A DNA stretch of 64,000 nucleotides from Sphagnum magellanicum. Taxonomy: Eukaryota > Streptophyta > Sphagnopsida > Sphagnales > Sphagnaceae. Below the pieces are notes generated by a model that was not told the origin of the DNA, ran no database searches, and was given only the letters and a program-made list of their open reading frames with translations. Shown here one piece after another: positions 5,631 to 57,040 of this stretch. Each line of letters begins with the position of its first letter. The stretch's first letter is position 1. The stretch spans positions 20,743,390 to 20,807,389 of the forward strand of contig CM038911.1 of assembly GCA_021904315.1 (NCBI GenBank). Direction: 5' to 3'. The position numbers and the translations under genes were made by a program.

Positions 5631-5929
5631 CTATAAACCTTATTCCACCATCTGGCCTACGGAGACCAAATTTTTTGTTATGGTTGGAACATGAAATATA
5701 TTTTTTAGGTATTATGTTTGCCCATCTTGCATGGACAATGGCACCTTGCCAATTTGTGTGATGGGATGTGTAGTGTCATCACCAGTTTCCACAAACCCTG
5801 GTGTCTTCAAATCCTTTGCGTTTCTAAACCATTCTCCATGGCTAGTCATGTGGTTTGAAGCTCCAAAATCCGCATATTAGACATTGTTGTTTGATACACC
5901 TCCTATCATTGAATTTACCATGTGCTACA
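5631..5929 (-). pseudogene. copia-1 aspartic protease remnant
   Basis: Continuing the minus strand from gag, the frame reads YADFGASNHMTSHGEWF, the copia retropepsin site. The active-site triad normally D-S/T-G is D-F-G here, which a single C-to-T change explains. Downstream KNIFHVPTITKNLVSVGQ is the conserved segment before the pre-integrase domain. Several stops are present. The protease would cut the Gag-Pol polyprotein in a live element. Confidence 0.75.
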
Positions 5930-13501: not shown

Positions 13502-14093
13502 TGTGAACCATACTAACAAAACCATGTGCGATAGTCTCAAAATTTAAGAGTTGCATTAGGGTTATTTGAGTGTGCCAAGGTTATTAGGGACTTTTAGTAA
13601 CTTCATAAGGGTGATGAATGCGCGTGGTTGCATGGAGGGGTTGTTTTCTTTTTTTAAATACGATATTGGTGAAGAAGGTGTTGGATTAGTTCTTTTCTTC
13701 AACAAAAAGCCGGTAATCATAATTTTAGAACCTCAATTGTGTAATTAAGGGTGAGAAATCTCTAGAGGGTTGGGGGTAGAAGCAAACACCAAAATTTGTG
13801 ATTTTCAACAAAACATTGGTCTTGTTCTAGTATTTAGTAAGTAGCAAGGATGTTTGAGATTCATGAAGCAATTGAAGGGGTGTCAATGAAAGGTCCATTA
13901 AAAATAGAACGATCTTCAAGCCTCATGAACATAAGATTAACTCAAAATAATTTAACAATTAAATAAATAGTGTGATAGGATGGTAATGGCAACATGAATG
14001 TTGTAATGAATAAAACATTTATTTAGAGTAGGGATAAGCTCAACAAAGAGCTACAATTACATGTTGAGTCCTAGGCTATGCCTCAATGATAGT

Positions 14094-14502
14094 TTATAAC
14101 TACAAGAAATCTAGGTTGCGTCAAATGATACAAACTAAGTAGTCTGCCTTGCTATTAAGAGGTAGTCACTGAATCGAACCGCGTAACCAATGTCGAGAAT
14201 TGAAGACCATGCAAAGATAGAGGTGTCTTCAGTTTCGTAACAACCTTCATAAACAATTTCCAAGTTCATCGCCAGAAGTAAGGTCGACTTGCAACAAGAT
14301 CACTAAGGTGTAAAGGTTTAGAAAGATGCGATATTACTAGCTCGAAAGGGTTGAACTTCAAGACGAACACGCACCTTTCGAGGTTCAAGATCTTCATCAT
14401 GAGGATGTTGTGTCAATGTCAAATTTAAAGATGTTTTTGGAGGAGATTCTTCATTCATTTATGCAGCTTGAGGCCGTAAGATGTCGTCATACGCAACGCC
14501 AT
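14094..14502 (-). pseudogene. Decayed F1 ORF (GHYRWLRGPI family), copy A
   Basis: The minus strand from 14502 opens ATGGCG and then follows the intact ORF at 37082, including the segments encoding TSYG near the start and the closing DFL-L-stop. The span is 409 bases, not a multiple of three, so at least one frameshift is present, and a TAG replaces the lysine codon two residues before the end. It is therefore a broken copy of a protein of unknown function. Confidence 0.7.
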
Positions 14503-14589
14503 AATTTCAAGGAAAGGAAAAAAAAAATTCAATCGAAATCAAATCAACAATGAATGTGTGGAAGATTTATTACATCAAGATGCGGGGTT

Positions 14590-14600
14590 GTAATTTATAG
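14590..14600 (-). promoter_or_regulatory. TATA-like box of F1 copy A
   Basis: The minus strand reads CTATAAATTACAA about 90-95 bases upstream of the ATG at 14502. The same box occurs at the same place in the other two F1 copies. Transcription from it is inferred. Confidence 0.55.
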
Positions 14601-14776
14601 ATCAAGGAAAAAGAAGGAAATGCGTAAGTAATAGCCTAAAACCACGATAAAGTAAAACCTTAATATTAATGGAAAAAATGAAGGTTTAAGTAAAATTTAT
14701 TGGGGGGAAAATGGGGAGAGGGGAAAAGGTGTTTTTTCTTTTCTTTTCATTGGTCACCCAAGCAATGGAACCTTCC

Positions 14777-15748
14777 TAACACACTCTCAACTCCTTAAAA
14801 GACTCAAATGTGAGTCCAAATAGAAGATAGTGGAAGAAAAAGAAGTCGGGGTATGCTCCTTAATTCATAACACTTTGAAGGGTAGAGGGGTGTGTTGGAG
14901 CTTCGAGATGGGACTAGGAAGAGTTGACAAGCTTCACTCACTCACATGAGCTTGCACACAACCCACACAAAGTGGTTAGTGCATAGTTGGAGCACCTTTG
15001 GTGCTAGGACGAACCATAGGCAACACAGACACACTAGACTCACCATGGCTCGGACTTGGGGGAAGCCACCATCTTCCCCCTTATAGTATACTTTGTGGCT
15101 GGCCACGGAGCCTACATCCTAATGGCTTTTCTTTCCCGGGACTTTCGAATGAGAGTCCTGAAATCGCGCCGGTTAGGACTTCCACAACTTTAGATCCCCA
15201 TAACTTTGCGAGCAAACCTCAGATCGCAATGTAGTCTACAACAAAGTTGTAGCTGTTGTCGAAAGCTTTCCAATGGTATGTGGCACGCCCTTTACAGCCA
15301 AGTAAATCGAGTCGATTCTTGATTTTTTCTGATCGGGAGTCAAATTGGCAGTTTGACTCCCGACCCTTCTTTTGGCCATAACTTGTGTTTTAGATATCCA
15401 AATGAGTAATGTGAGCTCATTTTAGACATTTACGTTCTAAGAGCTTTCGAATGATATAAAGAATGCCACAAGCCATTGAGTTTTGACCCCTGAAATTGCT
15501 CTATGAAATTTTGGGAGTCCACTAGGACTCCATCTCCCAAAGTGGAAGTTGCCTTGTGAGTGTGAGGGTTCACTCCCTCATACTCCCTCACATTTTCTTA
15601 TACTTTCAGGAGTGTGTGATGTGACTCTTAGGCTTCTTTTTGGCCCGCACCCTTGTGGCTTCTTTGCCTTGACTCCCAAGCTCCCACTTGGCCCGCACCC
15701 TTGCAAGCCCTTTGCCTTGGTCGTGAGCCCAAGGCTAGGGTTGCGACA
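14777..15748 (+). mobile_element. F3 element copy ii inside F1 copy A, TSD CTTCC
   Basis: Begins TAACACACTCTCAACTCC (TG decayed to TA) and ends AGGGTTGCGACA. It is flanked on both sides by CTTCC (14772-14776 and 15749-15753). The insertion splits the 26-bp minisatellite of F1 copy A, so this F3 is younger than that F1. The conserved 12-bp stem is at 15335-15361. Length is 972 bp. Confidence 0.88.
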
Positions 15749-15753
15749 CTTCC

Positions 15754-15845
15754 AAAGGCCACAAAGCATGGAACCTTTCAAGGCCCACCAAGCAATGGAA
15801 CCTCCCAAGGGCCACCAAGCATTGGAACCTTCCATTGGCCATCGA
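15754..15845 (+). repeat. 26-bp minisatellite of F1 copy A
   Basis: About four units of the type AAGGCCACCAAGCATGGAACC remain here, plus one unit left of the F3 insertion. The same array has about 10 units at 36587-36836 and about 2 at 56094-56145. Confidence 0.75.
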
Positions 15846-16089
15846 ATTGAGATATTCTTTCACCTTTTTCCTTTCTCTTTTTCTTTAAAAGGGCAAATTC
15901 GAATCATTGAGGTTCTCTTTTCCCCGGGATAATTTTCAATTCAAATCTTGAGAATACTTATTCCCACAACCTTGTTGAGGAAGAAAAGAATGATTAGTTT
16001 TGGTAGATGGTAGGAAGAAGGAGTGTAGATTAGACATTTGTAATAGTTTTGAAAGAATGGAAGTGAGTAGGAATAATGTTGGGAGGTTG

Positions 16090-16690
16090 AAATCTCTTAA
16101 AAGTCTCATAAACCCTCTCGGATTTGGTAACATAACTTCTTACTGGTTTAGTTGCAAAGCTTAGGATTTGGTAGCAAGGTGCGCCTTGTAATTAGTTTTT
16201 TAATAAACTAAGGCAAACTAGATTTAAATAACATATGTGTTAGGAATAATATTTCAAGTGACTAATGGTCTGCAGCCAAGTTGAAGTTATTACCCTCGTA
16301 AAACCCTCTCAAATTTGGTATCATAATTTCTTACTGGTTGAGATGCAGAGATTAGGATTTAGTAGCAAAGTGCAACTTGTAATTAGTTTTCTAAGGAACT
16401 AAGGCAAGCCAAATTTGAATAATATATGTGTTAAGAATAATATTTCAAGCGACTGGTGGTCTACAACCAAGTTGAACTTACTACCTTCGTAAAACCCTCT
16501 CAGGTTTGGTGGCATAGCTTCTTACTGGCTTAATTGCAGAGCTTAGGATTTGGTAGGAAGGTGCGCCTTGTAGTTAATTTTCTAATGAGCTAAAGCAAAC
16601 TAGATTTGAATAACATATGTGTTAGGAATCATATTTTAAGTGGTTGGTGGTATGTAGCTAAATTGAACATGGTGTTGAACCCTTAAAGGT
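16090..16690. repeat. ~190-bp tandem repeat of F1 copy A, three units
   Basis: The phrase GGTTTGGTAGCATA..TTCTTACTGG followed by AGGATTTGGTAG..AGGTGCGCCTTGTA recurs with a spacing close to 190 bases; the GGTCTGCAGCCAAGTTGAA-type segments start near 16262, 16452 and 16642. Confidence 0.8.
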
Positions 16691-16932
16691 TGGTTTAAAT
16701 GAATGACAATTTGACATAAAATTCTAAGATTTCATGTGTTTGAGCTTGGAAAATAGATCTATCAATTCTAAACCATAAATGATGCATAGGAGGCAAGTTA
16801 ATTGGTTTCAATTATAAATGTAATTTAACATCTAGAAATACACCTGTATTTTTCCTTCACCGATAGCGTATATACTTTCAAGTATAATCACTTCATAAAA
16901 CCGAGAGTAGAGGGACAGAAAGTTGTTTCACA

Positions 16933-22286: not shown

Positions 22287-22813
22287 CACCAAGCAAGAAA
22301 AATGACATTGTGTTAGAATAAGAAATAGTCAAGGGTTTAGCTTGTATAACATAGAAAGGGAGAATCCTTTTGAGGGAAGGCTTTTAGTTTGCAAGGTTGC
22401 AAAGAGAGTAGAAGTCCATTTCTAAGTGAGTGGGAGGTGTGAAAGAGATTTCTTCAAAGTGTTGTAAGTTTTTCAAGTGTGAAAAATTTATTCTTCAAGT
22501 TTTTTGAAAATATCAAGTTTCAAGGTGAAAGTGTGTGAAAGAAAGTTCTTCGATTCATTGAAAGTTTGAGGTGTGTGAAAGAAAGGTCTTTGAGTTGTTG
22601 AAAGTATGAAGTTTTCAAGTGTGTCAAAGAGAGTTTTTCGCATTGTTGCAAGTTTCAAATGAAATTTCAAGCTTGTGTAATAAAAGATTTGTAAGTGCTA
22701 GAAGTTTTTTCTTTTCAAGTTTACGTGAGGGGTCAAAGATTTCTTCCAAAGCTTTCAATCTTTTGAAAGAGTGTTTGTTATAGCATTTGTGCTCAAAATG
22801 TTTTCTTTTCAAA

Positions 22814-23556
22814 TGGGGTCCTTGAAAGTCATGGAGAAGTTTGATGGTGGCAACTTTCACCTTTGGAAGTTCAAAATGTGCATGATGCTTTCTAAACATG
22901 GGCTTTGGAAATTTGTTGATGGGAGTGCCACCTTGCCAAGTGAAGAAGTTGCAAGGGCCGATTACAACGAGAAAGAGACAAAGGCTTTTGCATTACTTTG
23001 TGAACATCTCATAAATGCCCAACTTGCACACATTCAATATTGTGACAATGTGAGAAGTGCATGGGAGGCTTTTTGTGGTGTGCATGAAGCTAAGACAATT
23101 GGTAACAAGTTGTTCTTTCGAAGGAAATTCTTCACCATCAAAATGCAAGAAGGAAATGACATGCTTGTGCACATCAACACGATGAAAGCCCTTGCAGACC
23201 AACTACGTTCCATTGAGGTGAACATTACGAATGAAAATGTTTACATAGTACTCCTCATGAGCCTTCTTCCATCCTTTGATAACTTAGTCACAAGCTTGGA
23301 GTCCATGTCCACAAAAGATGTAAACCTTCAATTCATTGTAGCAAGGTTGCTTCACAAAGTGTCCAAAAGAAAAGAATGTGAGAGTTTCGAGACTACCGCA
23401 TTAATGAACAAAACTCACAAGTCAAATGAAAAGCTTTGTTTCTATTGTAAAAAACCTGGACATTTTGTGAGAAATTGTTTGAAGAAGAAAAATGATAAAA
23501 AGAAAAAGCTAATCAAGCTTGTGAAGATCATGAACACATGTTTGTTGCGGCATTGA
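22814..23556 (+). pseudogene. copia-2 gag, nearly open
   Basis: From the ATG at 22814 the frame opens MGSLKVMEKFDGGNFHLWKF, the usual copia gag start. The UBN2-type middle domain is present (AWEAFCGVHEAKTIGNKLFF, MKALADQLRSIEVN). A CCHC knuckle reads CFYCKKPGHFVRNC near residue 215. An upstream in-frame ATG at 22771 also exists, but family members begin near MGSL. The frame leaves the true path in a lysine-rich run near 23510, where the correct continuation (CEDHEHMFVAAL) lies in another frame, so gag is separated from protease by a frameshift. Confidence 0.85.
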
Positions 23557-23990
23557 GTGCCAATGATCATACCATGTATGATTGGATTGTCGATTTTGGT
23601 GTAACATAACACATGACATTCGAACAAGAATGGTTTACCATGTATGAACGCATTTCCCCAAAAAGGGTGTTCATGGGCAATGACATCGTTTTAGAGGCCA
23701 TTGGCAAGGGAACATAAAAGCCACAATGCAAGTGGGAGGCAAATTGACACACACAACCATCACCCAAGTTCTTCATGTTCCAAAACTAAATAATAGTCTC
23801 ATTTCGGTGAATAAATTCATTTCGAAAGTTTCAAAGTGGAGTTTGACAAGGATGGTTATAAGGTCAATGATGTTCGAAGAGTTGTTGTGGCGGAAGCACG
23901 AAAGGACAAAAACTTTTACCTTCTTAATGTGAAGGTGCGTAAGGACACGACACACATTGCAAATTCTTTGGAGGAAGGTGTGATGCTTTG
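23557..23990 (+). pseudogene. copia-2 protease remnant
   Basis: Reads WIVDFGVT followed by a stop and HMTFEQEW, the copia retropepsin site with the active D-S-G changed to D-F-G. Then KRVFMGNDIVLEAIGKGT and TITQVLHVPKLNNSLISVNK, the conserved segment leading to the pre-integrase domain. At least two stops and one frameshift are present. Confidence 0.75.
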
Positions 23991-24266
23991 ACATCAAAGA
24001 CTTGGCCATTTCAACATGGCATGCCTTCAGGAGTTGGATGCCATGGTGAATGGCATGAATTTAAAAGAAGTGTCGTTGCATTGCATTTGTGAAAGATGCA
24101 TCAAAAGCAAACATCAAGGAACATCATTTCCCAAGGACGGACTAACGACGGCTTTGAAACTTCTAGAGATTTTCCACACTGATGTGTGCAGGCCAATGAG
24201 CACTACATTGCATGGTGGAGCACGATACTTTCTCACTTTCATTAACGATTTTTCAAGGAAAATTCA
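23991..24266 (+). pseudogene. copia-2 pre-integrase and start of integrase
   Basis: HQRLGHFNMACLQEL ... CICERCIKSKH is the H-H-C-C zinc-binding domain. The core begins LLEIFHTDVCRPM (first catalytic Asp) and runs to FINDFSRKIHV, where the F3 element interrupts it. The interrupted reading frame resumes at 25254 as YLLKAKGETFEKF. Confidence 0.85.
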
Positions 24267-25248
24267 TGTCGCAACCCCAGCTTTGGGCTCGCGACCAAGG
24301 CAAAGGGGTTACAAGGTTACGAATCAAAAGGAAGCCCAGGAGTCAAGACAAAGAGGTCACAAGGGTGCGGGCCAAGAAGAAGCCCGAGAGTCACATCACA
24401 TACTCCCGAGAGTGTAAGAAAGTGTGAGGGAGTATGAGGGAGTATGAGGGAGTGAACCCTCACACTCCCAAGGCAACTCGCACTTTGGGAAATGGAGTCC
24501 CAATGGACTCTCGAAACTTCAGAAAGCAATTTCAGGAGTCAAAACTCAATGTCTTGTGGCGTTCTTTATATCATTCGAAAGCTTTTAGAACGTACATGTA
24601 TAAAATGGGCTTGCATTTTTCATTTGGACATCTAAAACATAAGTTATGGCCAAAAGAAGGGCCAGAAGTCAAACTGCCAGTTTGACTCCTGACCAGAAAA
24701 AGTCAAAAATCGACCCAATTTACTTGGCTACAGAGGGTGTGCCACATACCATTGGAAAGCTTTTGACAACAGTTAGAACTTTGCTTGAGACCGCATTGCA
24801 ATCCAAGGTTTGTTCACAAAGTTATGGGGATCCAAAGTTGTGGGAATCCCAACCAACACAATTTCAGGACTCTCACTCGAGAGTCCCGGGAAAGAAAAGC
24901 CATTAGGATGTAGGCTCCGTGGCCAACCACAAAGTATATTATAAGGGGGAAGATGATGGCTTCCCCCAAGTCCGAGCCGTGGTGAGTCTAATGTGTCCGT
25001 GTTGCCCACGGTTCATCCTAACACCAAAGGTGTTCCAACTATGCACTAATCACTTTGTGTGGGTTGTGTGCAAGCCCATGTGAATGAGTGAAGCTTGTCA
25101 ACTCTTTCTAATCCCATCCCGGAGCTCCAACACGCCCCTCTACCCCTCAAAGTGTTATGAACTAAGGAGCGTGCTTCGACTTCTCTCTTTTCTGCTATCT
25201 TCTACTTCGACTCACATTTGAGTCCTTTAAGGAGTTGGGAGTGCGTTA
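24267..25248 (-). mobile_element. F3 element copy iii in copia-2 integrase, TSD ATTCA
   Basis: On the plus strand it starts TGTCGCAACCCCAGC and ends GAGTGCGTTA; read on the minus strand this is the usual TGACGC (here TAACGC) to GCGACA. ATTCA flanks both ends (24262-24266 and 25249-25253). Removing the unit and one ATTCA restores the integrase frame across IHV-YLL, which fixes both boundaries exactly. Length is 982 bp. Confidence 0.92.
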
Positions 25249-25253
25249 ATTCA

Positions 25254-26211
25254 TGTCTATCTTTTGAAGGCCAAAGGAGAAACGTTTGAAAAATTCAAAC
25301 AATACAAGGCATTGGTGGAGAACGAAATTGGTCACAAAATCAAAGTGCTACAATCTGACAATGGAGGAGAATTTGTGTCTAAGATGTTTGACGCATTTCT
25401 TGTGGAATGTGGAATTCAATGACAAATAAGTGCGCCCTATTCCCCACAACAAAATGGTGTTGCAGAACGTGCCAATAGAACCATCATGGAATGTGCAAGA
25501 AACATGATTTTTGCACAAAGGTTAAAACTTGAATTTTGGGGTGAAGTAGTGAACACGACAGTGTACATAAAAAATTGATGTCCAACCAAGGCTCTTGATT
25601 CCAAAACCCTTCAAGAAGCATGGAATGGTAGGAAACCCGATGTGTTTCATTTGAGAGTTTTTGGTTGTAAAGCCTTTGCACATGTCCCTGATGAGAAGAG
25701 GACCAAATTAGAGTCCAAATCCATGCCTTGTGTGTTTTTAAGATATTATGAAAGCACCAAAACGTATCGCTTGATGTGTGTAGAAACCAAGAGAATCATC
25801 AAAAGTAGAGATGTCGTGTTCATTGAAGGGTCAAAGGAAATAGGTGGTGTGCTCCATCCTGAAAAAGAAGAAAATGTAGTTGTGCACGAAGAAGTGGAAG
25901 GAGAAGAACCATTGACCTTTAGTCAAGATACACCGTTGAATGAAACAAGAATGGAAGGTGTGCAAAGTGAATCCACACCAAGTTTTTCATCGAAAGAAAG
26001 ATTTGTTGTTTCGAATGATAACCTATCTAATGAACCTTCACAAGATGTGCTAAGGGAAAGACCTCAAAGGCAACAAAGGGAATGGCCTCGAAATTGGTGG
26101 ATTGCTACCAAGGAGGTGGAGCGTGCCACCGTTGCATTTTTGGAGGAGCCCCAAAATATTGAAAAAACATTGACATGTGAAAATTCTAAGGAGTGGGAAT
26201 GTGCGATGTAA
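25254..26211 (+). pseudogene. copia-2 integrase, remaining part
   Basis: Contains VLQSDNGGEFVSKMF (second catalytic Asp), SPQQNGVAERANRTIMECAR (catalytic Glu in VAER) and the copia-specific C-terminal part FHLRVFGCKAFAHVPDEKR and YRLMCVETKRIIKSRDVVF. Stops occur in FLVECGIQ-stop and VYIKN-stop. From about 25880 a charged, low-conservation linker leads toward RT. In a live element integrase inserts the cDNA into the genome. Confidence 0.85.
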
Positions 26212-29664: not shown

Positions 29665-30309
29665 AAAAATGACGCACTCCTAACTCCTTTAAGGATTCAA
29701 ATGTGAGTCCAAATAGAAGATAACGGAAGAAAGAAAAGTCGGGGCACGCTCCCTAGCTCACAACATTTTGAGGGGTAGAAGGGCGTGTTGGAGCTCCGGG
29801 ATGGGACTAGAAAGAGTTGACAAGCTTCACTCATTCGCATGGGCTGTGAGCCATGGATCATAGCTCAACAATTAATTAAGCCTTAGTTCCGTAATTTTCC
29901 TTAGTACTAATGATTTGAATGCTTATAAGCCTCCAAGTAGTGATTATTAATAGTTGAATCAGCTTTTGTGATATTTCCAGGCATATATTACTTCTTTATT
30001 TTAGTTGATGTAACGCTTAATCAGTTAAGCACTTAGTAAACCTTTTAAAGTACATTATCCCTTTTATGTTGGAGAGAACGGAAATGGGATGTAAAATTAT
30101 ATGTGATTTATTGATATATAGGAAATACAAGCCCATAATTAACAATAGCATTTCGCCATGACAAGGTTAAGTTAGTTTGTAGAAAAATCTTCAAGCACTA
30201 ATGATGTACTTGTAAGATTTTTAGGATGTAGTCCTAGTATATCTTTATTTAGTTTCACTTCTATCAGACTTTTAAATAGAATCAATTCAAACTTAAGTAT
30301 TAACATTTC

Positions 30310-30329
30310 CGCCTGAGTAGCCTCAGGTG
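30310..30329. other. Stem-loop downstream of the F2 ORF, minus copy
   Basis: CGCCTGAG, loop TAGC, CTCAGGTG. It lies about 35 bases past the ORF stop. The equivalent at 41712-41731 keeps pairing through a paired change. Confidence 0.6.
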
Positions 30330-30362
30330 AATTACAACTTTATAACCGACTTAAAGGATAGA

Positions 30363-30776
30363 TCACAATTGCAAAAAATCTAGAATGCGACGAATGGTGT
30401 GAGCGAGGTACTCGGCTCAATGCTCCATGAGAAGGGGGTTGATTGGCCCTCGTAGCCAACGATAATGGCCATCACCGGGAACCCACGTTTAACAATGGAG
30501 ACAGACATCATCATCTTCGCATTGACATTCTTCGAACCTTTCTGGCGCGGTTCCACGAGCAGGAACGAATTTTAAGTAAATTGTTAAAGCATGTGGGTTA
30601 GGAGATAGTTGACGATCCCATGCCAAACAATCGACTCGAGTGCGCACCATTCGCCTGGGCGGTTCTTCTTCGCGCGGCTGTTGAGAAACAATCACGTTGA
30701 GCGATGCTTCTTCAAACTCTTCATATTTTACTCGTGTAACTGGAGGATTCAAAAGTGTAGTGACATCATCCGCCAT
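30363..30776 (-). pseudogene. F2 ORF (GHYRWLRGPI family), one stop, otherwise intact frame
   Basis: From ATG at 30776 the frame runs MADDVTTLLNPPVT ... RRMVRTRVDCLAWDRQLSPN ... ERFEECQCEDDDVCLHC, then a single TAA, then TWVPGDGHYRWLRGPINPL, AEYLAHTIRRILDFLQL and the natural stop at 30363. The second F2 copy has Arg (CGA) where this TAA lies. Total length is 414 bases, identical to the copy at 41263-41676, with no indel. The protein would be 137 residues, acidic in the N-terminal half, with a conserved C-terminal 45 residues. Function unknown. No signal peptide or membrane span seen. Confidence 0.75.
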
Positions 30777-32987
30777 GACTAGTTCTCACCTGCATCAATA
30801 AAAAAAACCAAGAAGGTAATACGAACAATGTGGTACTTGCGTTCAGAAGGGGTCGAGGCTTTTTTATTTAACAAATTAGGGTAGGCGTAAGGTGTGGGAG
30901 TGACGACGAAACTTCACGAAACCTCGAACATCTTAGATCTAAAGGATTCATCAAACCCTAATTTCGTCAACGGATCTATAAGTATGTGGGGGTTTTTGTG
31001 GTGCAAATTTACTTCCAATTTACTATGTATTACATAGTCAACTAGTACATGGTAAAATAAATAAGTAGGGGATATAAAGAGAGTAAATAGTACAAGGGAA
31101 TGTTAATTCAACCATTGAATTAGTCAAGTAAGAATTCAAGGATGTTACTAATTACTACCGATAAACTATCCTAGTAGTTAATTACTTGAAGTAATTAGGA
31201 TGAAAAAATAGGATGTGAAGGTCAACGAACGGAAAGGATAAGGATCAAGTTCAGGAGACCTCATCAAGATATCCAAGATAAAAGAAGGGATGAATCCTCC
31301 AATCCCATTAGTCATGAGGATTGTCATCCTATTTGATTGGAGGATGGAGTTTTCCTTGTGTCTCATTGGGCCCAAGAATTCTCATCCTAAACTCAATTGG
31401 ATGGCAATTTATTCTTTATTCTCATTGGCTCAAGAAGGATGAGGAGGCCATTGATTGGAGCAATGGATTACAAAACTTTCATTAGACAAGGGGAACAAGC
31501 TCAAAGAAGGTCATGGAGGCTTACCAAGGGAGAAGGTATTGTGTGTATGTGGGAAGGAAAGAAAGAGGAGGAGGAAGTGTGAGGAAGAATGTTTAGTCCT
31601 TATGTGTGGAGAGGTGTTCATGGAAAGAAAGTGTGCAAGAATCAAACATGGAAGGAAGTTGTGTGTAACAAGTACTTGTAGCAAAGCCTCTAGAATTTTA
31701 CTTCAATTAATTGTTCCTCCCAAATCCATCGTTGGATTTGTGTCAAAATTTAATCAGTTTTAGTTTGGAAGGTGTAAAAGTTTCTCCCAAAATTTCAGCA
31801 TCATCAGAGTTGTTGTAAGGGAGTTACACTTGTTGGAAGTAGAGGGGGTCGAATTGTTTGTTTTTTCTTTCAATCTAAGCAAGGTGGTTTCTAGTTCAAA
31901 GTTTAACTCTTGATAAAAAAAAACAATAATAATAAAACTAAAAACTTATGAGATTTTATACCATGGCTCCTTTAGATTAGTTTTTTTTCAAAAATCCAAT
32001 GCATGTTAGATTAGGATGTTATGTGTAGATGTTGGACACAACGCATTAGATCATTAGTGAATTTCATTACTTACCTTGAACCGCCTTACGTGTTAGACTA
32101 CAACTACATAGTAGTTCCACTCCAACCGGGTTTTTTGTGAATACATATCTTAATGGTGAAGGTGTGCAAGAATTCTTCACACGGGCCTACACATAACCCA
32201 CACAAAGTGGTTAGTGCATAGTTGGAGCACCTTTGGTGCTAAGACGAACCACGGGCAACACGGACACATTAAATTCACCACAGCCTGGACTTGGGGGAAG
32301 CCACCACCTTCCCCCTTATAATATACTCTATGGCTGGCCACAGAGCCTACATCCTAATAGCTTTTTTTTCCTGAGACTCCTAAGTGGGAGTCCCGAAATT
32401 GTGCCGGTTGGGACTCCCACAACTTTGGATCCCCATAACTTTGCAAGCAGACCTCAGATCACAATGCGGTCTCAAGCAAAGTTATAGTTATTGTTGAAAC
32501 CTTTCCAACAATATGTGTCACGCCCTCTGCAGCCAAGTAAATTAGGTCGATTCTCAACTTTTTTGGTCGGAAGTCAAACTCGCAGTTTGACTCCCGGCCA
32601 TTCTTTTGGCCATAACTTGTGTTTTAAATGTCCAAATGAGCAATGCGAGTTCATTTTAGACATGTGTGTTCCAAGAGCTTTCCAATGATATAAAAAATGC
32701 CACAAGCCATTGAGTTTTGACCCCTAAAATTGCTCTTTGAAATTTCAGAAGTGCACCAGGACTCCATCTCCCAAAGTGGGAGTTGCCTTGGGAGTGTGAG
32801 GGTTCACTCCCTCATATTCCCTCACACTTTCTTACAAGCTCGGGAGTATGTGATGTGACTCCTGAACTTCTTCTTGGCCCGCACCCTTGCGACCTCTTTG
32901 CCTTGACTCCTGGGCTTTTTCTTGGTTCGCAACCTTGTAACCCCTTTGCCTTGGTCACAAGCCCAAAGCTAGGATTGCGACAAAAAA

Positions 32988-35496: not shown

Positions 35497-35759
35497 AGGA
35501 ATATGAGATGATTTTTCGTCCCTCTACTCCCGGTTCTACAAGGTGATTATGCTTGAAAGCACAAATGCTACTAGTGAAGGAAAAAATGCAAGTGTAATTT
35601 TAAATGTTAGATTGCGTTTGTAGTTGAAATTAAGTAGCCCACCTCCTATGCATCATTTATGATTAGAACTGATGGATATATTTTTTCAAGCTCACACACT
35701 ACACATCCTAGGACTTCATGTCAAATTGTCATTCATTTAAACCAATGTTTAAGGATTCA

Positions 35760-36345
35760 ACACCATGTCCAACATAGCTGTAGGCCGCTAGTCACTTGAA
35801 ATGTTGTTTCTCACACCTATGTTATTCAAATCCGGCTTGCCATAGCTCTCTAGGAAGCTAACAACAAGGCGCATCATGCTACCAAATCCTAGGCTCTACA
35901 ACTAAACCAGCAAGAAGTTATGCTACAAAACGCGAAAGGGTTTTACAAAGGTGATAATTCAACCTTGATGCATACCATTAGTCACTTAAAACATCATGTT
36001 TAACACATACATTATTCAAATCCTGATTGCCTTAGCTAATTAGAAAGCTAATTACAAGGTGCACCAACCTATCAAATCTTAAGATCTGCAGCTACACTAG
36101 CAAGGAGTTATACTACCAAAACCGAGAGGGTTTTTGTGAAGGTAGTCGGCTCAACTTGATTGCAGACCCGTAGTCACTAAAAACCTCATTTCTATCACAT
36201 ACTTTATTCAAATCCGGCTTGCCTTAGCTCGTTAGAAAGTTAACTACAAGACACAACTTGTTATCAAATCTCAAGATCTGCAACTAAACTAGTAAGAAGT
36301 TATGCTATGAAACCCGAGAGGGTTTGTGAGATTTCTTTAAAGTTC
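35760..36345 (+). repeat. ~190-bp tandem repeat of F1, three units
   Basis: The anchor TAGTCACTTGAAA recurs near 35788, 35981 and 36170, each followed by ATTCAAATCCGGCTTGCC, AGAAGTTATGCTAC and a GAGAGGGTTTT-type phrase. Unit length is about 187-193 bases. Confidence 0.85.
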
Positions 36346-36586
36346 CAACCTTCCAACACTATCACTACCCACCCCCATTCCTTCAAAACTATTACAAGAT
36401 TTTAATTCTACTTTCCTTCCTTCTTCCCTCTACCAAGACTAATCATTATTTGCCTCTTCAAAAAACTTGTGGAAACAAGTATTCAAGATTGCATGAAAAT
36501 TATTTCCGAAGCAAGAGAGAGCTCCCAATGATTCGAGTTCGCCTTTTAAAAAGAAGGAGAAAGGAGGTGAAGGTGGATCCAAAGCT

Positions 36587-36836
36587 TGGTGGCCAATGGA
36601 AGGTTCCAAAGCTTAATGGCCAATGGATGATTCCATGCTTGGTGGCCAATGGAATGTTCCATGCTTGGTGGCCAATGGAAGGTTCCATGTTTGGTGGCCA
36701 TTGGAAGGTTCCATGCTTGGTGGCCATTGGAAGGTTCCATGTTTGGTGGCCATTGGAAGGTTCCATGCTTGGTGGCCATTAGAAGGTTCCATGTTTGGTG
36801 GCCATTGGAAGGTTCCATGCTTGGTGGCCAACGGAA
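36587..36836 (+). repeat. 26-bp minisatellite of F1, about 10 units
   Basis: Unit GGTGGCCATTGGAAGGTTCC plus ATGCTT or ATGTTT. Because 26 is not a multiple of three, the array is open in several frames on both strands (up to 130 codons); these frames are repeat artefacts and are not annotated as genes. Confidence 0.95.
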
Positions 36837-36980
36837 CGTGAAGGAAAAACACCTTTTCACCTCTTCCATTTTCCCCCAACAAACTTTACTTAAACCTTCA
36901 ATTTTTTCCTTTGACCTTATGGTTTTACTTTACCATGGTTCTAAGCCGTTACTCACGCCTTTCTTTCCTTTTTTTTTATC

Positions 36981-36990
36981 TATAAATTAC
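36981..36990 (+). promoter_or_regulatory. TATA box upstream of the F1 ORF
   Basis: TATAAATTAC lies 101 bases before the ATG at 37082 and is conserved in F1 copies A and B at the equivalent place. If F1 is an LTR, this would mark the U3/R border and the ORF would lie in R-U5. Confidence 0.6.
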
Positions 36991-37081
36991 GATTGCGCAC
37001 CTCAATGTAACAAGTCCTTCACACCTTCATTGTCAATTTGATTTTGATTAAAGATCTGACCTTTTTCCTTTCCTCAAAATT

Positions 37082-37504
37082 ATGGCGTCGTGCATGGTCA
37101 CATCTTACGGACCGCAAGCCGCACAAGTGAATGAAGAATCGCCTCTGGAGTCGTCTCTAGATCTTACCTTAACACAACATCTTCGTGATGAAGAACCCGA
37201 ACTTCGAGAGGTGCATGCTCGTCTTGAAGTCAAACCCCCTCGAACCTGGTACTATCGTATTTCTCCAAACTCTTGCACCCTAGTGATCTTGTTGCAAGTC
37301 GACCCCGCTTCTAGTGACGAACCCGAGACCGTTTATGAAGGTTATTACGAAACTGAAAATATTTTTATCTTCGCATGGTCTTCAATTCCCGGCGTTGGTC
37401 ACTATCGTTGGTTGCGCGGTCCGATTCGTCGATTGCCTCCTAATAGCAAGGCGGACTACCTAGTTCGCACCATCCGACACATCCTAGATTTCTTGAAGTT
37501 ATAA
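37082..37504 (+). CDS. Intact 140-aa protein of unknown function (GHYRWLRGPI family)
   Basis: Open from ATG 37082 to TAA 37504, with higher GC than its surroundings. The N-terminal third (MASCMVTSYGPQAAQVNEES) is variable and acidic. The middle has RLEVKPPRTWYYRISPNSCT, matching MVRTRV...W.RQLSPN in the F2 proteins. The last 45 residues hold PGVGHYRWLRGPIRRL and YLVRTIRHILDFLKL, the most conserved part across five copies in this window. It is mostly hydrophilic with no signal peptide, membrane span or Cys/His metal site, and resembles no retroelement enzyme. A TATA box lies 101 bases upstream. The conserved basic and aromatic patch suggests a nucleic-acid or protein contact, but this is a guess. 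Confidence 0.65.
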   Translation: MASCMVTSYGPQAAQVNEESPLESSLDLTLTQHLRDEEPELREVHARLEVKPPRTWYYRISPNSCTLVILLQVDPASSDEPETVYEGYYETENIFIFAWSSIPGVGHYRWLRGPIRRLPPNSKADYLVRTIRHILDFLKL

Positions 37505-38100
37505 ACTATCATTATGGCATAACTCAGGATTTTACATGTATTTGCAACTCCTTGTTGAGCTTATCCCTATTATAAATAAATGTTTCAATTATCATCAAAC
37601 TCCTATTGCCATTGGCACACTATCATACTATTTATTTAAATCGTTGAATTGCCTCGAATTAACCTAATGTTCAACGACTCGAAGATTGTTCTATCTCTAT
37701 TAAACCTTTCATTAACATCCCTTTAATTGCTTCAAGAATTTTTAACATCCTTGCTACTCCCTAAATACCAAAACAAGACTAATGTTGTGTTGAACACCGC
37801 AAATTTTGGTGTTTACTTCTACCCCCAACCCTCTAAAGATTTTTCACCCCTAATTACGCAACAAAGTTTCTAAAATTATGGTTATTAGCCTCTGTTGAAG
37901 AAAAGAATTAATCTAATTCCTTATTCACCAATAACGCATTTCAGAAAAGAAAACAACCCCCCTTCGCACCAAGCACATTCATTATTCCCTGTGAAGTCGC
38001 TAAAAGCCCTTAATAACTTTACCTCACTTAAATAACCCTGATGTAACTCTTAAAAATTAAGACTACCGCACATGGTTGTGTCGATATGGCTCACAAGGAA

Positions 38101-39032: not shown

Positions 39033-40012
39033 GATCTATCAAGTTTAGCTTCTTCTTCTTAACAATGGCATGTGTTGTTTGTGGGGCATTCCAATTTTTT
39101 GCAAAAAATGGGGTACTTATAATTTTTCTGACAGTCCTCACTTGGATGTGTGCCTATGGTCACGAACATATGATGGTGACCCACATCCAACTTGATGCTA
39201 CAATTTGACATTGACTTGGTTATTTGACCCACAATAATATTTATTTATGTTTTCTACATCTTCTCCTTTTTTTGATGCTGATTACAATGGTGTTTTTGGC
39301 TTCCCTTCTTCCTCCTCCAATAAGGCTCCTTCTTTTTGTTCAACCAGCGCTTCTTGGATTGCATTATATTTTTAAATTGGCAACTCATATTCGTCATCAT
39401 CTAGATCACTTTCATTCTCTAGCCACTTCTTGCAAGTGACTTCTACTAATGAATATTGGTCTACTCTACTTGTCCCCAATAGATATTATGTTTGGAGTAA
39501 TAAACGGGTCATGTAGTTTTGGTTTGTTGATTCAATTGGCCACAAATTGTCCCCTGGAACTTTGTGAGGCATTCTTACACACCCTTAACATGAAGATATG
39601 CACTCACAAACCCGTTTGGAAGTGGAACTACTATGTAGTTGTAGTCTAACAAGTAAGGTGGTTCTATGTAATGCAATGAAGTTCACTAAGAATCCAATGT
39701 GTTGTGTCCACTTGGAAGATACAAAGACATTGTGGGAGAATCGTAACTCACCATGATGGAATGTGAAGGGGCATTATGTTGATGTTCATTCAATGTCACG
39801 CTTGACGGTTGAACCCTTTTTGTTCCATTCGTCATAACATCTACACATAACCTCCTAATCTAACATGCATTGGATTTTTGAAATGTTAATCTAAAAAAGA
39901 ACCATGGTACAAAATCTTTAAGTTTTTATTCTTTTGATCAAAAGTTAAGCCCTGGGACTAAAAATCACTTTGCTTAGATTGAAGAAAAAAAACAGACAAT
40001 TTTAACCTCCTC

Positions 40013-40395
40013 TACTTCCGGCAAGTGTAGCTCCCTTACAACAACCTTGATGATGCTGAAAATTGGAGAGAACCTTCTAAACAAAAACTGTTTAAAGTTT
40101 GACACAAATTCAACGCTGGATTTGGGGGGAACAATTATTTGAAATAAAACTCCAGAGGCTTTATCATGGAAATCCTTCCATGAACTCCACTACAAACACC
40201 TTTTACTTCCGGCAAGCGTAGCTCCTTTATAGCAACCCTGATGATGCTAGAATTTGGAAAGAACCTTCTACACCTCCTAAACAAAAATTGTTTTAAGTTT
40301 GACATAAATCTAATGCTGGATTTGGGAGGAACAACTATTTGAAATAAAACTCCAGAAGTTTTATCATGGAATTCCTTCCATGCTTATTTCTTGCA
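40013..40395 (+). repeat. 191-bp tandem repeat in F2 plus copy, two units
   Basis: TACTTCCGGCAAG begins each unit at 40013 and 40204, followed by GTAGCTCC and GATGATGCT, then CTCCAGA.G.TTTATCATGGA. The F2 minus copy carries only one unit (about 31680-31850). Confidence 0.85.
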
Positions 40396-41166
40396 CACAT
40401 CTTTTTCATGAACAACCTTTCCACACATAAGAACTAATCTTTTTTTCACACATTCATTATCCTCGTTTTTTTTTTTTCCCACATAAGATACTCCTCTAAT
40501 CTCCTTTGGTAAGCCTCCATGACCTTTCCTTGAGCTTGTTTCCCTTATCCAATGGAAGCTTCGAAATCCTTCCGTCTAATCAATGCACCCTTCATCTTTC
40601 AAGAGCCAATGAAAATTGAGAATGATTTGCCCTCCAATTGATTTTAGGATGAGAATTCTTGGGCCCAATGAGACATAAAAAATATTCCATCCTCTAATCA
40701 AATAGGATGACAATCCTCATGACTAATGGGATTGGAAGACTCATCCTTTCCCTTATTTTGGATATCTTGATGAGGTTCTTAACCTTGATCTGTATCCTTT
40801 CCGTCCGTTGACCCTCACATCCTACTTCTTCATCTTAATTATTTCAAGTAACTAATTATTAAGACAATCTATCGGTAGTAACAAGTAAACATCATTGAGT
40901 CCTTACTTGATTAAATCAATTCAATGGTTGAAGTAACATTCACGCATACCATTTACTCTTTTGATATCCCCTACTTATTTTTTCTTCTATGCACTAATTA
41001 ACTATGTAGTACATAGTAAATTGGAATTAAAAATTGCATCACAAAAACCCCCACATACTTCTAGATCCACCGTCGAAATTAAGGTTCGATGACTCCATTA
41101 GATCTAGGATGTTCAAGTTTTCATGAGGTTCCGGCGTCACTCCCACACTTTAAGCCTACCCTAATT

Positions 41167-41180
41167 TATTAAATAAAAAC
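41167..41180 (+). promoter_or_regulatory. TATA-like box of F2 plus copy
   Basis: TTATTAAATAAAAA lies about 85-95 bases before the ATG at 41263. The minus copy has GTTAAATAAAAAA at the same distance. This position matches the TATA box of F1. Confidence 0.45.
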
Positions 41181-41262
41181 ACTTGAACCCTTTCTGAACG
41201 CAAGTACCACATTGTTTCTGCTACCCTCTTGGTTTTTTGTTGATGCAAATGAGCATTTAATC

Positions 41263-41676
41263 ATGGCAGATGATGTCACTACGCCTTCGAATCCTCCAAT
41301 TTCACTAGTAAAAAAGGAAGAGCTTGAAGAAGCACCGTTTGATGTGAAGGTCTCTCAATAGTCATGCGAAGAAGAACCGTCCAAAAGAATGGTGCGCACT
41401 CGAGTCGATCATTCGGCATGGGATCGTCAATTGTCTCCTAACCCACATGCTTTAGCAATTTATTTAGAATTTGTTCCTGCTTGTGGAGCCGCACCAGAAA
41501 GGTTTTAAGAATGTCAATGTGAAGACGACGATGTTCGTTTTCATTATCGAACTTGGGTTCCCAATGATGGCCATTATCGTTGGCTGCGAGGCCCAATCAA
41601 TCCCCTTCCCATGGAGCATCGAGCCGAATACTTAGCTCGCACCATTCGTCGCATTCTGGAGTTTTTGAAATTGTGA
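41263..41676 (+). pseudogene. F2 ORF (GHYRWLRGPI family), two in-frame stops
   Basis: Same length (414 bases) and frame as the copy at 30363-30776. It reads MADDVTTPSNPPISLV, then a TAG where the other copy has Gln, RMVRTRVDHSAWDRQLSPN, then a TAA where the other has Glu (ERF-stop-ECQCEDDD), and PNDGHYRWLRGPINPL, AEYLARTIRRILEFLKL. No indels. The first stop is a simple C-to-T change. Since the two F2 copies carry different stops, each probably inserted intact and decayed independently. Confidence 0.8.
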
Positions 41677-41711
41677 TCTATCCCTTTAAAGTTGTTTACT
41701 AAGTTGTAATT

Positions 41712-41731
41712 CACCTAAGGCCACTTAGGTG
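41712..41731. other. Stem-loop downstream of the F2 ORF, plus copy
   Basis: CACCTAAG, loop GCCA, CTTAGGTG: a perfect 8-bp stem with a 4-base loop, 36 bases after the ORF stop. Confidence 0.65.
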
Positions 41732-42199
41732 GAAATGTTAATGCCTAAGTTTGATTTTGATTTTATTTAAGAATTTAATAAAAGTGAAAACTAAATAAAG
41801 ATGTATTAAGACTACATCTCAGAATTCTTTCAAGTACATCATTCGTGCATGAAGATTATTTTACAAACTAACTTAATATTATCATGACGAGATGTTATTG
41901 CTAATTATGGGCTTGTATTCCCAATATATCAATAAATCAAATCTAATTCTATATCCCCTTTCCCTTCTCTACAACATAAAAGGATCATGCACTTAAAAGG
42001 TTTACTAGGTCTTAAAATTAACTAAGCCTTGCATCAATTTAAGTAAAAAAGTCTTCTACGCTGAAATATCCGAAAGCTAATTCAACTCTTAATGAATATT
42101 ACTTGGAGGTTTATCAGGATTCAAATCATTAATACTAAGGAAAATTATGGAACTAAAGCTTAACAATTTGTGGTATTATAATCCATGACTCACAAGCTT

Positions 42200-54361: not shown

Positions 54362-54962
54362 TGTGAGCTATACTGACATGACCATGTGCGGTAGTCTCAA
54401 TTTTTAAAAGTTGCATAAGGAATATTTGAGTATGGTAAAGTTATTAAGGGTTTTTAGCAACTTCATGTTAGAATAAGGAATGATGAATGCCCATGGTTGC
54501 ATGGGGGGGTTTTTTTTTTTTCTTCTGAAATACGATATTGGTGAATAAGGTGTTGGGTTAGTTCTTTTCTTCAACAAAATGCTGGTAACCATAGTTTTAA
54601 AACCTTAGTTGTGTAATTAAGGGTGAGAAATTTCTAGAAGGTTGGGGGTAGGAAACACCAAAATTTGTGGTGTTCAACAAAACATTGGTCTTGTTCTAAT
54701 ATTTAGTGAGTAGTAAGGATGTTTGATATTCATGAAGCAATTGAAAGGGTGTCAATGAAAGGTCCAATAGAAATAAAACACTTTTCAAACCTTATGAACA
54801 TAAGATTAATTCGAGACAATTTAACGATTAAATAAATAGTGTGATAAGGTGGCAATGGCAACATGAGTTTCATAATTAATGAAACATTTATTTAGATTAT
54901 GGATAAGCTCAAAGAAGAGTTTCAATTACATGTTAAGTCCTGGGCTATGCCACAGTGATAGT

Positions 54963-55384
54963 TCATAATTGCAAGAAATCTAAGATGCGTGAAATGGTGC
55001 GAATCAGGTAGTTCGCCTTGCTATTAGGAGGCAATTGGTGAATCAAATCGCATGACCAACGATAATGTTCAATGCCGAAAATTAAAGACCATGCAAAAAT
55101 AAAGGTGTATTTAATCTCTAACAACCTTCACAAACAGTTTCAAATTTATCACCAAAAATAAGGTCGACTTGCAACAAAATCACCAGGGTGCGAGAGTTCG
55201 GAGAAATGTGATAATACCAGGCTCAAGGGGGATCAACTTCAAGACGAACACGCACCTTTTGTGGTTTGGGATCTCCATCACGAAGATCTTGCATCAATGT
55301 CAAATATAAAGATGACTTTGGAGTTAGTTCTTCATTCACTTGTGCAGCTTGAAGCCCGTAAAACATGGCCATATGTGATGCCAT
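54963..55384 (-). pseudogene. Decayed F1 ORF (GHYRWLRGPI family), copy B
   Basis: From the ATG at 55384 to the TGA at 54963 the minus strand follows the intact ORF at 37082. The span is 422 bases against 423, so at least one single-base deletion is present. The closing codons for DFLQL are preserved, as is the start region (MASHM..CFTG-like with altered frame). The TATA-like box lies at about 55475-55485. Confidence 0.7.
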
Positions 55385-55525
55385 AATTTCAAGGAAAGGA
55401 ATAAAGATCTTTAATCAAAATCAAATTGGCAATGAATGCGTGAAGGATTTATTACATCGAAATGCATGGTTGTAATTTATAGATCAAGGAAAAAAAAGAA
55501 AATGCGTAACTAATTGCCTATAATT

Positions 55526-55991
55526 TGTTTAAAATACTATTCGTTTCTAATTCCCAATGTTGATGAATGTGTTAAACATTCATCAAAAGGATGAATAATA
55601 TTCACATCTTTGTAATAGTTAGGTTAAGGTTTAGAAGTGGAAACTATTTAGGGCTTAGTGGTGGCTAGGGTTAGGGTTTGGTGGTAGCTAAGGTTAGGTG
55701 GTAGCTAGGTCAAGGTTTGGTGGCCGCTAAGTTAGGGTGAAGTGGCGGCTAGGGTTAGGGTTATGAAATAGTATATAATGGAGTGGTTTTGAATTATCTT
55801 TCATTCTCTCCTTTCATGGTTTTGAATGCACATAGAACCTTCAAGCTTTGTTAGTAGTTGTAAGCCATAGTTTTGTGATTCTAACATTTGAAGCATACAA
55901 CCTTTGTGATTTCTTGTTAGTTAATAAAATTATTCCATTTCATGAACCTTGAATGTTTCATTTTTTGTTTGTTTTCAAGTTGTTTCCAATA
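55526..55991 (+). mobile_element. Solo LTR of the copia-2 family inside F1 copy B
   Basis: Begins TGTTTAAAATACTATTCG and ends TTGTTTCCAATA, matching the copia-2 LTR at 21742-22273 end to end, with fewer TTAGGG-type units. In F1 copy A the uninterrupted target reads GCCTAAAACCACG. Here it is GCCTATAATT before and GAACCATCG after, consistent with a decayed duplication of AAACC. No internal region is present, so LTR-LTR recombination is inferred. It lies just upstream of the F1 TATA box. Confidence 0.8.
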
Positions 55992-57040
55992 GAACCATCG
56001 TAAAGTAAAACCTTAAGATCACTGAAAAAATGAAGGTTTAAGTAAAATTTGTTGGGGAAAGTGGAAAGAGGTGAAAAGGTGCTTTTCCTTTTGCTTCCAT
56101 TGGCCACCTAGCATTAAAACCTTCCATTGACCACCGAGTTGGGATCTTTCTTCACCTCCTTCCTTCTCCTTCTCTTTAAAAGGGCGAATTCGAATCGTTG
56201 GAACTTTCTCTCTTTTCCAAACATAATTTTGATTCAAATCTTGGGAATACTTGTTCCCACAACTTTTGTTGGGAGCAAAAAAATGATTAGTCTTAGTAGA
56301 TGATGGAAAGAGGGAGACTAGATTGGATGTTTATAGTAATTTCGAAAGAATGGAAATGAGTAGGGGATAGTGTGGGGAACTTGAAATCTCAAAGAAATTT
56401 CACAAACCCTCTTGGGTTTGGTAACACAACTTCTTACTAGTTTGGGTGCAAAACTTGTAAATTAGTAGGTAGATGCGCTTTATAGCTAGCTATCTAATGA
56501 GCTAAGGAGAGCTAGATTTGGATAACATATGTGATAAGAGTAGTATTTTAAGTGACTAGTGGTCTATAGCCAAATTGAACTTTCTACCTTTGTAAAACCC
56601 CCTTGGGTTTGGTAGCATAACTTCTTATTGGTTTAAGTGCAGAGCTTAGAATTTGGTAGGCATATGTGCCTTGTAGTTACCTTTTTAATAAGTTAAGGCA
56701 AGCTAAATTTGAATAGCGTATGTGATAGGAATAATATTTTAAGTGACTAATGGTCTGCTGCTAAGTTGAACATGGTGTTGAATCCTTAAAAGTTGGTTTC
56801 AATGAGTGACAATTTAACATAAAATTCTAGGATTTGGATTGTTTGAGCTTGGAAATTATATCTATCAATTTTAAATCATAAATGATGCATAGGAAGTAAG
56901 CTATTTGGTTTCAACTACAAATGTAATTTAACATGTAGAAATACACTTTACATTTTTTTTCCTTCACCAATAGCATATGTACTTTCAAATATAGTCACCT
57001 CAAAGAATCGGGAATAGAGGGACAAAAAAGTCACCTCACA

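What the first reader, a model, noticed from the sequence alone, without database searches (positions are those of the whole stretch)
35502..38095. Two related families of 2.2-2.6 kb TG...CA elements (F1, F2) that carry their own promoter and a conserved ORF
Seen directly: five units (13502-16932, 29845-32181, 35502-38095, 39563-42194, 54362-57040) begin TGTGAR and end YTCACA or close variants. Four have 5-bp flanking duplications (TGGGC/CGGGC, AGGAA/AGGAA, AACTT/AGCTT, CCAAA/CCAAG). F1 and F2 differ in most sequence but share the internal order: ~190-bp tandem repeats, TATA-like box, ORF of 137-140 codons, 0.5-0.6 kb tail. TG...CA ends with a 5-bp duplication are LTR hallmarks, so the simplest reading is solo LTRs whose R-U5 encodes a protein. 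That is unusual. The alternative is a self-contained mobile unit moved in trans by an integrase-type enzyme.
Basis: partly seen in the sequence, partly recalled or inferred. Interest (0 to 1): 0.87.

Follow-up and report, generated by a model that had tools for sequence, protein, structure and literature searches.

The report
Retrotransposon LTRs carrying a backwards gene
These repeats are the end sequences (LTRs) of a moss jumping gene, mostly left behind alone, and each end carries on its opposite strand a complete, evolutionarily conserved little gene of unknown function, which is an unusual place for a gene.

Summary
The five units are real, and they are LTRs of Ty3/gypsy retrotransposons, mostly solo. 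Each LTR type (F1, F2 and a third, F3, found elsewhere in the genome) occurs followed by TTT and a primer-binding site for the genome's own tRNA-Gly(UCC): 18 nt exact at the F3 locus checked, one base different at the two F2 loci read. At C4, gag, RT, RNase H and integrase follow. At two loci pol-region sequence runs into an F1 LTR. One C4 element has two LTRs identical over 2283 bp, in an arrangement best read as a later inversion.

It is a compact antisense gene wholly inside the LTR, with a TATA box about 100 bp upstream (27 of 28 F1, 7 of 8 F3, 0 of 20 F2 copies) and AATAAA downstream. The protein is under purifying selection between families (F1-F3 dN 0.063, dS 0.58).

Antisense ORFs are known in plant Ty3 elements, but between pol and the 3' LTR. 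Placement inside the LTR, so that solo LTRs keep the gene, is a new variant. Expression and function are untested.

The parts
35502..38095 (-). F1 solo LTR (retro-sense on minus strand), TSD AGGAA at 35497-35501 and 38096-38100
   Evidence: LTR identity by homologues with PBS and gag
37082..37504 (+). intact 140-codon ORF, antisense to retro-sense; the conserved LTR-embedded gene
36981..36988 (+). TATA box of the antisense gene, 101 bp before the ATG
37575..37580 (+). AATAAA about 70 bp after the antisense stop codon
35789..36331 (.). about 190-bp tandem repeats (three imperfect units) in F1, upstream of the antisense promoter
36584..36839 (.). 26-bp minisatellite (about 10 copies) in F1
   Evidence: TRF unit positions 1083-1335; BLAST to 1338
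13502..16932 (+). F1 LTR copy, no TSD, interrupted by a ~970-bp repeat at 14777-15748
14103..14473 (-). broken (frameshifts, stops) copy of the antisense ORF in the 13502 unit
29845..32181 (+). F2 solo LTR, TSD TGGGC/CGGGC; itself inserted in a copy of the ~970-bp repeat (29672-29845 + 32177-32982)
   Evidence: F2 LTR-PBS junctions
30366..30776 (-). F2 antisense ORF copy with in-frame stops
39563..42194 (-). F2 solo LTR, TSD AACTT/AGCTT
41263..41673 (+). F2 antisense ORF copy (1 TAG, 1 TAA inside)
40013..40382 (.). F2 tandem repeat (two units, 84%)
54362..57040 (+). F1 solo LTR, TSD CCAAA/CCAAG, with an insertion at about 55525-55992
54966..55384 (-). broken copy of the antisense ORF in the 54362 unit

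Best explanation
The units are the 2.3-2.6-kb LTRs of a group of Ty3/gypsy retrotransposons in a plant (probably moss) genome, mostly reduced to solo LTRs. Each LTR carries, on the strand opposite to gag-pol, a compact gene of 137-140 codons: in F1 and F3 a TATA box, a short leader, the ORF, and a poly(A) signal. Shown: LTR identity, antisense orientation, gene-like anatomy in F1/F3, and purifying selection on the protein between families. Inferred: the gene is transcribed from its own antisense LTR promoter, independently of genomic RNA, and its product (acidic N-terminal part, basic C-terminal part) acts in trans as an accessory regulator of the element, perhaps through the tandem repeats beside its promoter. 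Since the gene lies inside the LTR, every full insertion carries two copies and a solo LTR still keeps one. Selection acts through elements that transpose; inserted copies then decay, mostly by transitions.
For: LTR: TG..CA ends and 5-bp TSDs. Junction CTCACA-TTT-TGGTGCGTCTGCCGG: 4 exact and 19 with up to 3 mismatches genome-wide, 0 in the control. The PBS read at C3 matches 18 nt of the genome's own tRNA-Gly(UCC) with CCA added. C4: gag, RT, RNase H and integrase; C3: gag by Pfam; C20 and C5: internal sequence matching that of C3/C4. F2: same TTT-PBS at two loci, each with one base different, and weak same-strand matches to the F3 gag region beyond them (C2:35532377, C21:180256). Pol-region sequence runs into an F1 LTR at C15 and C1; a matching 94-bp piece precedes an F3 LTR at C4. 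The two F3 LTRs at C4 are identical over 2283 bp and the ORF is open in both. Antisense: 11 of 19 PBS junctions could be assigned to an F1, F2 or F3 LTR; the ORF hit itself is on the opposite strand at ten, and at C20 the LTR's orientation says the same. Selection: F1-F3 dN 0.063, dS 0.582 over 84 pairs of intact copies; pairwise F1-F3 divergence by codon position 0.092/0.076/0.284; ORF identity 86% against 69% in either 300-bp flank (48 pairs), and each of the other five frames holds 2 or more stops in every intact copy. F1 and F2 proteins are 35-41% identical with an in-frame 3-residue gap. TATA in 27 of 28 F1 and 7 of 8 F3 copies; AATAAA at +70 in 24 of 28 and +64 in 7 of 8. Acidic/basic parts. 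Within-family ORF differences are 92%, 97% and 85% transitions in F1, F3 and F2.
Against: No transcript, protein or function data. Pfam and PDB profile searches gave no significant match and the fold model is unusable (pLDDT 42). TATA in 0 of 20 F2 copies. No consistent sense-strand TATA was found (3 of 6 F3 stretches share a TATA-like motif at -217). No purine tract abuts the 3' LTR at the three loci seen. Within families dN/dS is higher (F1-F1 0.34, F2-F2 0.39, F3-F3 0.60), and many copies carry stops (F1 16 of 28, F3 1 of 8, F2 11 of 20). The loci compared were picked by similarity to the unit or protein, so intact frames are over-represented.
Confidence: 0.8

Rival explanations
1. Sense reading: solo LTRs whose R-U5 encodes a protein translated from genomic RNA.
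For: Single TG..CA copies with TSDs, TATA box upstream of the ORF on the same strand.
Against: PBS and gag-pol lie on the other strand at all 11 junctions that could be assigned. On the ORF's 3' side the 36 F3 and 43 F2 listed flanks look different from one another by eye, as expected for the outer edge of solo LTRs; one of them (C4:13518525) is the internal 3' end before a 3' LTR.
Confidence: 0.02
2. Self-contained mobile unit (no internal region), moved in trans by an integrase.
For: Among 84 exact F1 outer ends none has a same-strand neighbour within 20 kb (read by eye; a partner with a mutated end would be missed). First-look ORF candidates 1151 for F1/F3 and 1041 for F2, 150 scored each, against 17 pol-3' and 29 gag candidates, all scored.
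Against: LTR-PBS-gag loci, pol-to-LTR junctions and an identical LTR pair exist. Trans-mobilisation of lone LTRs has no known reverse-transcription route (recalled). Solo formation by LTR-LTR recombination explains single copies with TSDs.
Confidence: 0.05
3. The antisense ORF is a passively carried or host-derived sequence, or its conservation reflects a DNA/RNA regulatory constraint rather than a protein.
For: No known domain; no expression data; four of five copies in the window are broken.
Against: Third-position-biased divergence with dN/dS 0.11 between F1 and F3, a 3-residue in-frame gap to F2, conserved start and end, and stops in all other frames.
Confidence: 0.1

Closest known systems
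Antisense additional ORFs (aORF-3R) of plant Ty3/gypsy elements: maize Grande gene23, rice RIRE2, Silene Retand, and PvRetro13 (PMC7264820: passages and section 5 read; PMC11963269: passages read)
   Same: LTR retrotransposon with a conserved ORF antisense to gag-pol, often with tandem repeats nearby; function unknown; the sources suggest a regulatory role, and gene23 is reported as nuclear and transcribed from its own promoter.
   Different: Those ORFs lie in the internal region between pol and the 3' LTR; here the whole gene lies in the LTR. The Retand Transposase_28 (PF04195) domain does not match here.
HTLV-1 HBZ (recalled; passages of PMC7264820 and PMC11963269 mention the HTLV antisense promoter inside the 3' LTR and HBZ)
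   Same: Antisense regulator made from an LTR-located antisense promoter.
   Different: HBZ coding sequence lies mostly outside the LTR (recalled); no sequence relation tested.
MMTV superantigen gene in the LTR (recalled, no call)
   Same: A protein coded within an LTR.
   Different: MMTV sag is sense-strand (recalled); this gene is antisense.

Membership tests
LTR retrotransposon LTR | TG...CA ends | tested here: met
   (a few copies have a mutated end such as TATGAG)
LTR retrotransposon LTR | short fixed-length target-site duplication | tested here: met
   20 of 34 perfect and 7 of 34 one mismatch by script, 5 more perfect by eye, 2 none; chance 0.1% and 2.7%
LTR retrotransposon LTR | PBS complementary to a tRNA just inside the 5' LTR | tested here: met
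   F1, F2, F3 loci; 18 nt to own tRNA-Gly(UCC) at C3, one base different at the two F2 loci
LTR retrotransposon LTR | two near-identical LTRs in direct orientation flanking the internal region | tested here: inconclusive
LTR retrotransposon LTR | polypurine tract abutting the 3' LTR | tested here: not met
   at three loci the bases before the LTR are ...GATGGTC(G/A)CCA(C/T)G, not purine-rich; a purine-rich stretch lies roughly 70 bp upstream
Ty3/gypsy superfamily | Retrotrans_gag, RT, RNase H, then integrase downstream of RT | tested here: met
   one element (C4): order, Pfam matches (RVT_1, RT_RNaseH, Integrase_H2C2; rve 32.0 bits, just under its 32.6 cut-off)
Ty3/gypsy lineage (Tat/Retand, Athila, Phygy, chromovirus) | RT phylogeny | not tested
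Retand-type antisense aORF-3R | ORF antisense to gag-pol | tested here: met
   11 of 19 PBS junctions assigned, all opposite, one of them by LTR orientation only
[quoted passage not shown]
   ORF is inside the LTR, present in solo LTRs
Retand-type antisense aORF-3R | Transposase_28 (PF04195) domain | tested here: not met
   PF04195 not among the matches at E<=1 of 26 proteins

The most novel reading that the evidence does not exclude
The LTR itself is a gene: a Ty3 lineage has placed an antisense trans-acting accessory gene (promoter, ORF, poly(A) signal) wholly inside its LTR, so that full elements carry it twice and solo LTRs keep it. Hundreds to perhaps over a thousand solo LTRs, some with intact frames, then form a dispersed pool of regulator genes that could activate or repress the few remaining full-length elements and nearby host genes. 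F1 and F3 elements, with LTRs only 71-74% identical but internal regions 94-95% identical, suggest that LTRs and their gene move between elements as modules.
Probability: 0.4. Interest if true: 0.75.

Novelty: new variant of a known kind. Interest (0 to 1): 0.6.

Why it matters
Antisense accessory genes of plant Ty3 elements have no known function (PMC7264820, section 5). A version inside the LTR separates the gene from gag-pol: it persists after solo-LTR formation, which makes it a natural test of whether such proteins act in trans. It would also mean that many of this genome's 'solo LTRs' are potential promoter-plus-gene units rather than inert scars. The codon-level selection signal gives a clear prediction (an antisense transcript from the TATA box) that strand-specific RNA data could test.

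Tried and rejected
Searched for a tRNA-iMet PBS after the unit's GCTCACA end: no match, because I was looking at the wrong end of the LTR. Shared 3' flanks on the ORF side for F3 and F2: the 36 and 43 listed flanks look different by eye, for the same reason. Pfam, a PDB profile search and IMG/VR for the protein: nothing significant. AlphaFold on three window sequences: pLDDT 42, not used. Sense-strand TATA: none consistent. Ordinary uninverted LTR pair: one candidate 3' region (C1:28027100-28029600) held no LTR, and another (C20:546-555 kb) could not be fetched. Rejected: TRIM/SMART element (no direct terminal repeats inside the F1 or F2 unit at E 1e-3; very short ones would be missed); integrase-moved independent unit; DNA transposon (PBS and gag-pol present). 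Not tested: RT lineage, expression, other mosses (one search says this genome has no relatives in the search), the prokaryote collection.

Full report
Setting. The window is part of a 439-Mb, 31-contig genome (G000:C5:20743390-20807389). The size equals that reported for Sphagnum divinum (439 Mb; PMC13120521 and PMC9946827, passages read). That is circumstantial, and the paper's chr. 20 of 5.4 Mb does not equal C20's 4.7 Mb here, so the species, and even 'moss', is an inference.

Observation. Self-BLAST confirms the five units and two families, with homology ending at or near the stated ends. Genome-wide, the 35502-38095 unit has 66 matches from 40 scored of 685 candidates; the 16 best begin within 18 bases of its start and reach its last base. 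Both ends were located in 37 of 63 stretches; three of those are 5' LTRs with a PBS. Of the remaining 34, 20 have a perfect 5-bp duplication and 7 have one mismatch (chance 0.1% and 2.7%); five more are perfect by eye; L020 and 13502-16932 have none. In the window only one of five ORF copies is intact (37082-37504); the others are broken.

Families. Protein searches showed 1151 first-look candidates for the F1-type ORF and 1041 for the F2-type; 150 of each were scored, all 150 with E-values below 1e-63. The two candidate sets may overlap. Among the first set is a third LTR type, F3 (L012, L016, L018, L019, L026, L029-L031), about 73% identical to F1 in DNA but 83-86% in protein (seven of the eight).

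Why LTRs. All copies first looked single: among 84 exact F1 outer ends none has a same-strand neighbour within 20 kb (read by eye). The decisive locus was C4:13517500-13534600, where an F3 unit, read on the strand opposite to its ORF, runs ...CCTCACA-TTT-TGGTGCGTCTGCCGGGAGG into gag, RT, RNase H and integrase. A genome-wide search for this junction gave 4 exact places and 19 with up to three mismatches, with 0 in the control. Eleven of the 19 could be assigned: six F1 (C5:2776682, C20:3849694, C19:5982518, C19:5999220, C1:28020752, C14:552799), three F3 (C3:13823841, C4:13531353, C13:11049502) and two F2 (C21:179953, C2:35531192); eight were not assigned. At ten of the eleven an ORF hit lies on the strand opposite to the PBS; at C20 the orientation comes from the LTR alignment. 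LTR followed by PBS and internal sequence was read directly at C3, C4, C5 and C20. The PBS at C3 equals, over 18 nt, the complement of the 3' end of a tRNA-Gly(UCC) gene of the same genome, CCA added; the two F2 PBSs differ from it by one base each. The other end: at C15 and C1, internal sequence continuing from the pol region runs directly into an F1 LTR start.

A pair. At C4 the two F3 LTRs are identical over 2283 bp and the ORF is open in both. The right one has the PBS; the left one is preceded by 94 bp also found before the C15 and C1 3' LTRs. They are inverted relative to each other. The first 270 bp of an older F1-like LTR lies beside the left one, and the rest of it lies in opposite orientation further right. 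The simplest reading is one young element later cut by an inversion with a breakpoint in the neighbouring F1-like LTR; an assembly error is not excluded. The flank of the 5' LTR (CCCCT in retro sense) and the poly-C/CCCCT next to the other LTR are compatible with a TSD, but the LTR end there is damaged.

Solo excess. F1 alone has 317 outer ends within two mismatches in 19 bases (reversed-pattern control: 2), whereas all families together have 19 PBS junctions within three mismatches in 24 bases, 17 pol-3' candidates and 29 gag candidates (all scored, several fragmentary). The counts differ in stringency, so I claim only that solo LTRs exceed full elements by roughly an order of magnitude or more. 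A published survey notes a high solo-to-full ratio in the moss Physcomitrella patens as well (PMC7251063, passages).

The antisense gene. Between intact F1 and F3 copies (84 pairs) dN is 0.063 and dS 0.582; within families the ratio is higher (F3-F3 0.60, F1-F1 0.34, F2-F2 0.39), as would be expected if individual copies decay with little selection. Within-family ORF differences are mostly transitions (F1 92%, F3 97%, F2 85%). ORF identity between F1 and F3 is 86% against 69% in the 300 bp on either side, and all other frames contain stops. F1 and F2 proteins are 35-41% identical, aligned with one 3-residue gap and a strongly conserved C-terminal part. A TATA-like box lies about 100 bp before the ATG in 27 of 28 F1 and 7 of 8 F3 copies, but in 0 of 20 F2 copies. 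AATAAA follows the stop by 70 bp in 24 of 28 F1 and by 64 bp in 7 of 8 F3; in F2 it lies at +117 in 14 of 20. These loci were chosen by similarity to the query protein or unit, so intact frames are over-represented. The window protein has an acidic first 50 residues (pI 4.4) and a basic last 40 (pI 11.4). No Pfam family or solved structure matches significantly, and the fold model is too poor to use.

Mechanism. Shown: LTR identity, antisense orientation, gene-like anatomy in F1/F3, selection between families. Inferred: transcription from the internal antisense promoter and action in trans on the element. I prefer a regulator of LTR activity (activation, or protection from silencing) because the gene sits beside tandem repeats, as in Retand-type elements, and because its charge pattern would fit a DNA- or RNA-binding regulator; I put about 0.4-0.5 on that functional part.

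Comparison. Plant Ty3 elements with antisense ORFs between pol and the 3' LTR are known (PMC7264820, PMC11963269). In the passages read, neither describes one inside an LTR. My searches for LTR-located ORFs listed no paper that by title or start of abstract is about such a gene; none of those listed was opened. They cover open-access papers only, and work such as Steinbauerova et al. 2011, cited in those papers, was not read. The review's remark that these ORFs are conserved but of unknown function applies here too.

Modularity. Internal regions of F1- and F3-bearing elements are 94-95% identical while their LTRs are 71-74% identical, so LTR types appear to have been exchanged between closely related elements.

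Noticed in passing
L066, L068, L070 and L061 (C3, C20, C5, C4): F1- and F3-bearing elements share 94-95% identical internal regions although their LTRs are only 71-74% identical, as if LTRs had been swapped.
   Followed up: partly
L071, L072, L060:950-1043: No polypurine tract abuts the 3' LTR; instead a conserved stretch with the palindrome-like CTATTCAATYGAATAR lies about 20 bp before it.
   Followed up: no
G000:C19:5980207-6001554: Two F1 5' LTRs with PBS and gag face each other about 17 kb apart with near-equal scores, like an inverted duplication.
   Followed up: no
L060 and L061 (C4:13517500-13534600): Element with identical LTRs apparently cut by an inversion (or misassembly) with a breakpoint in an older F1-like LTR.
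   Followed up: partly
window 24267-25248, 14777-15748, 29672-32982 (split), 51301-52178: A separate ~970-bp repeat family, possibly another solo LTR, hosts and is hosted by these units.
   Followed up: no
window 5100-6572, 22798-26211, 62627-63100: Decayed copia-like coding fragments, judged from the translations by eye.
   Followed up: no
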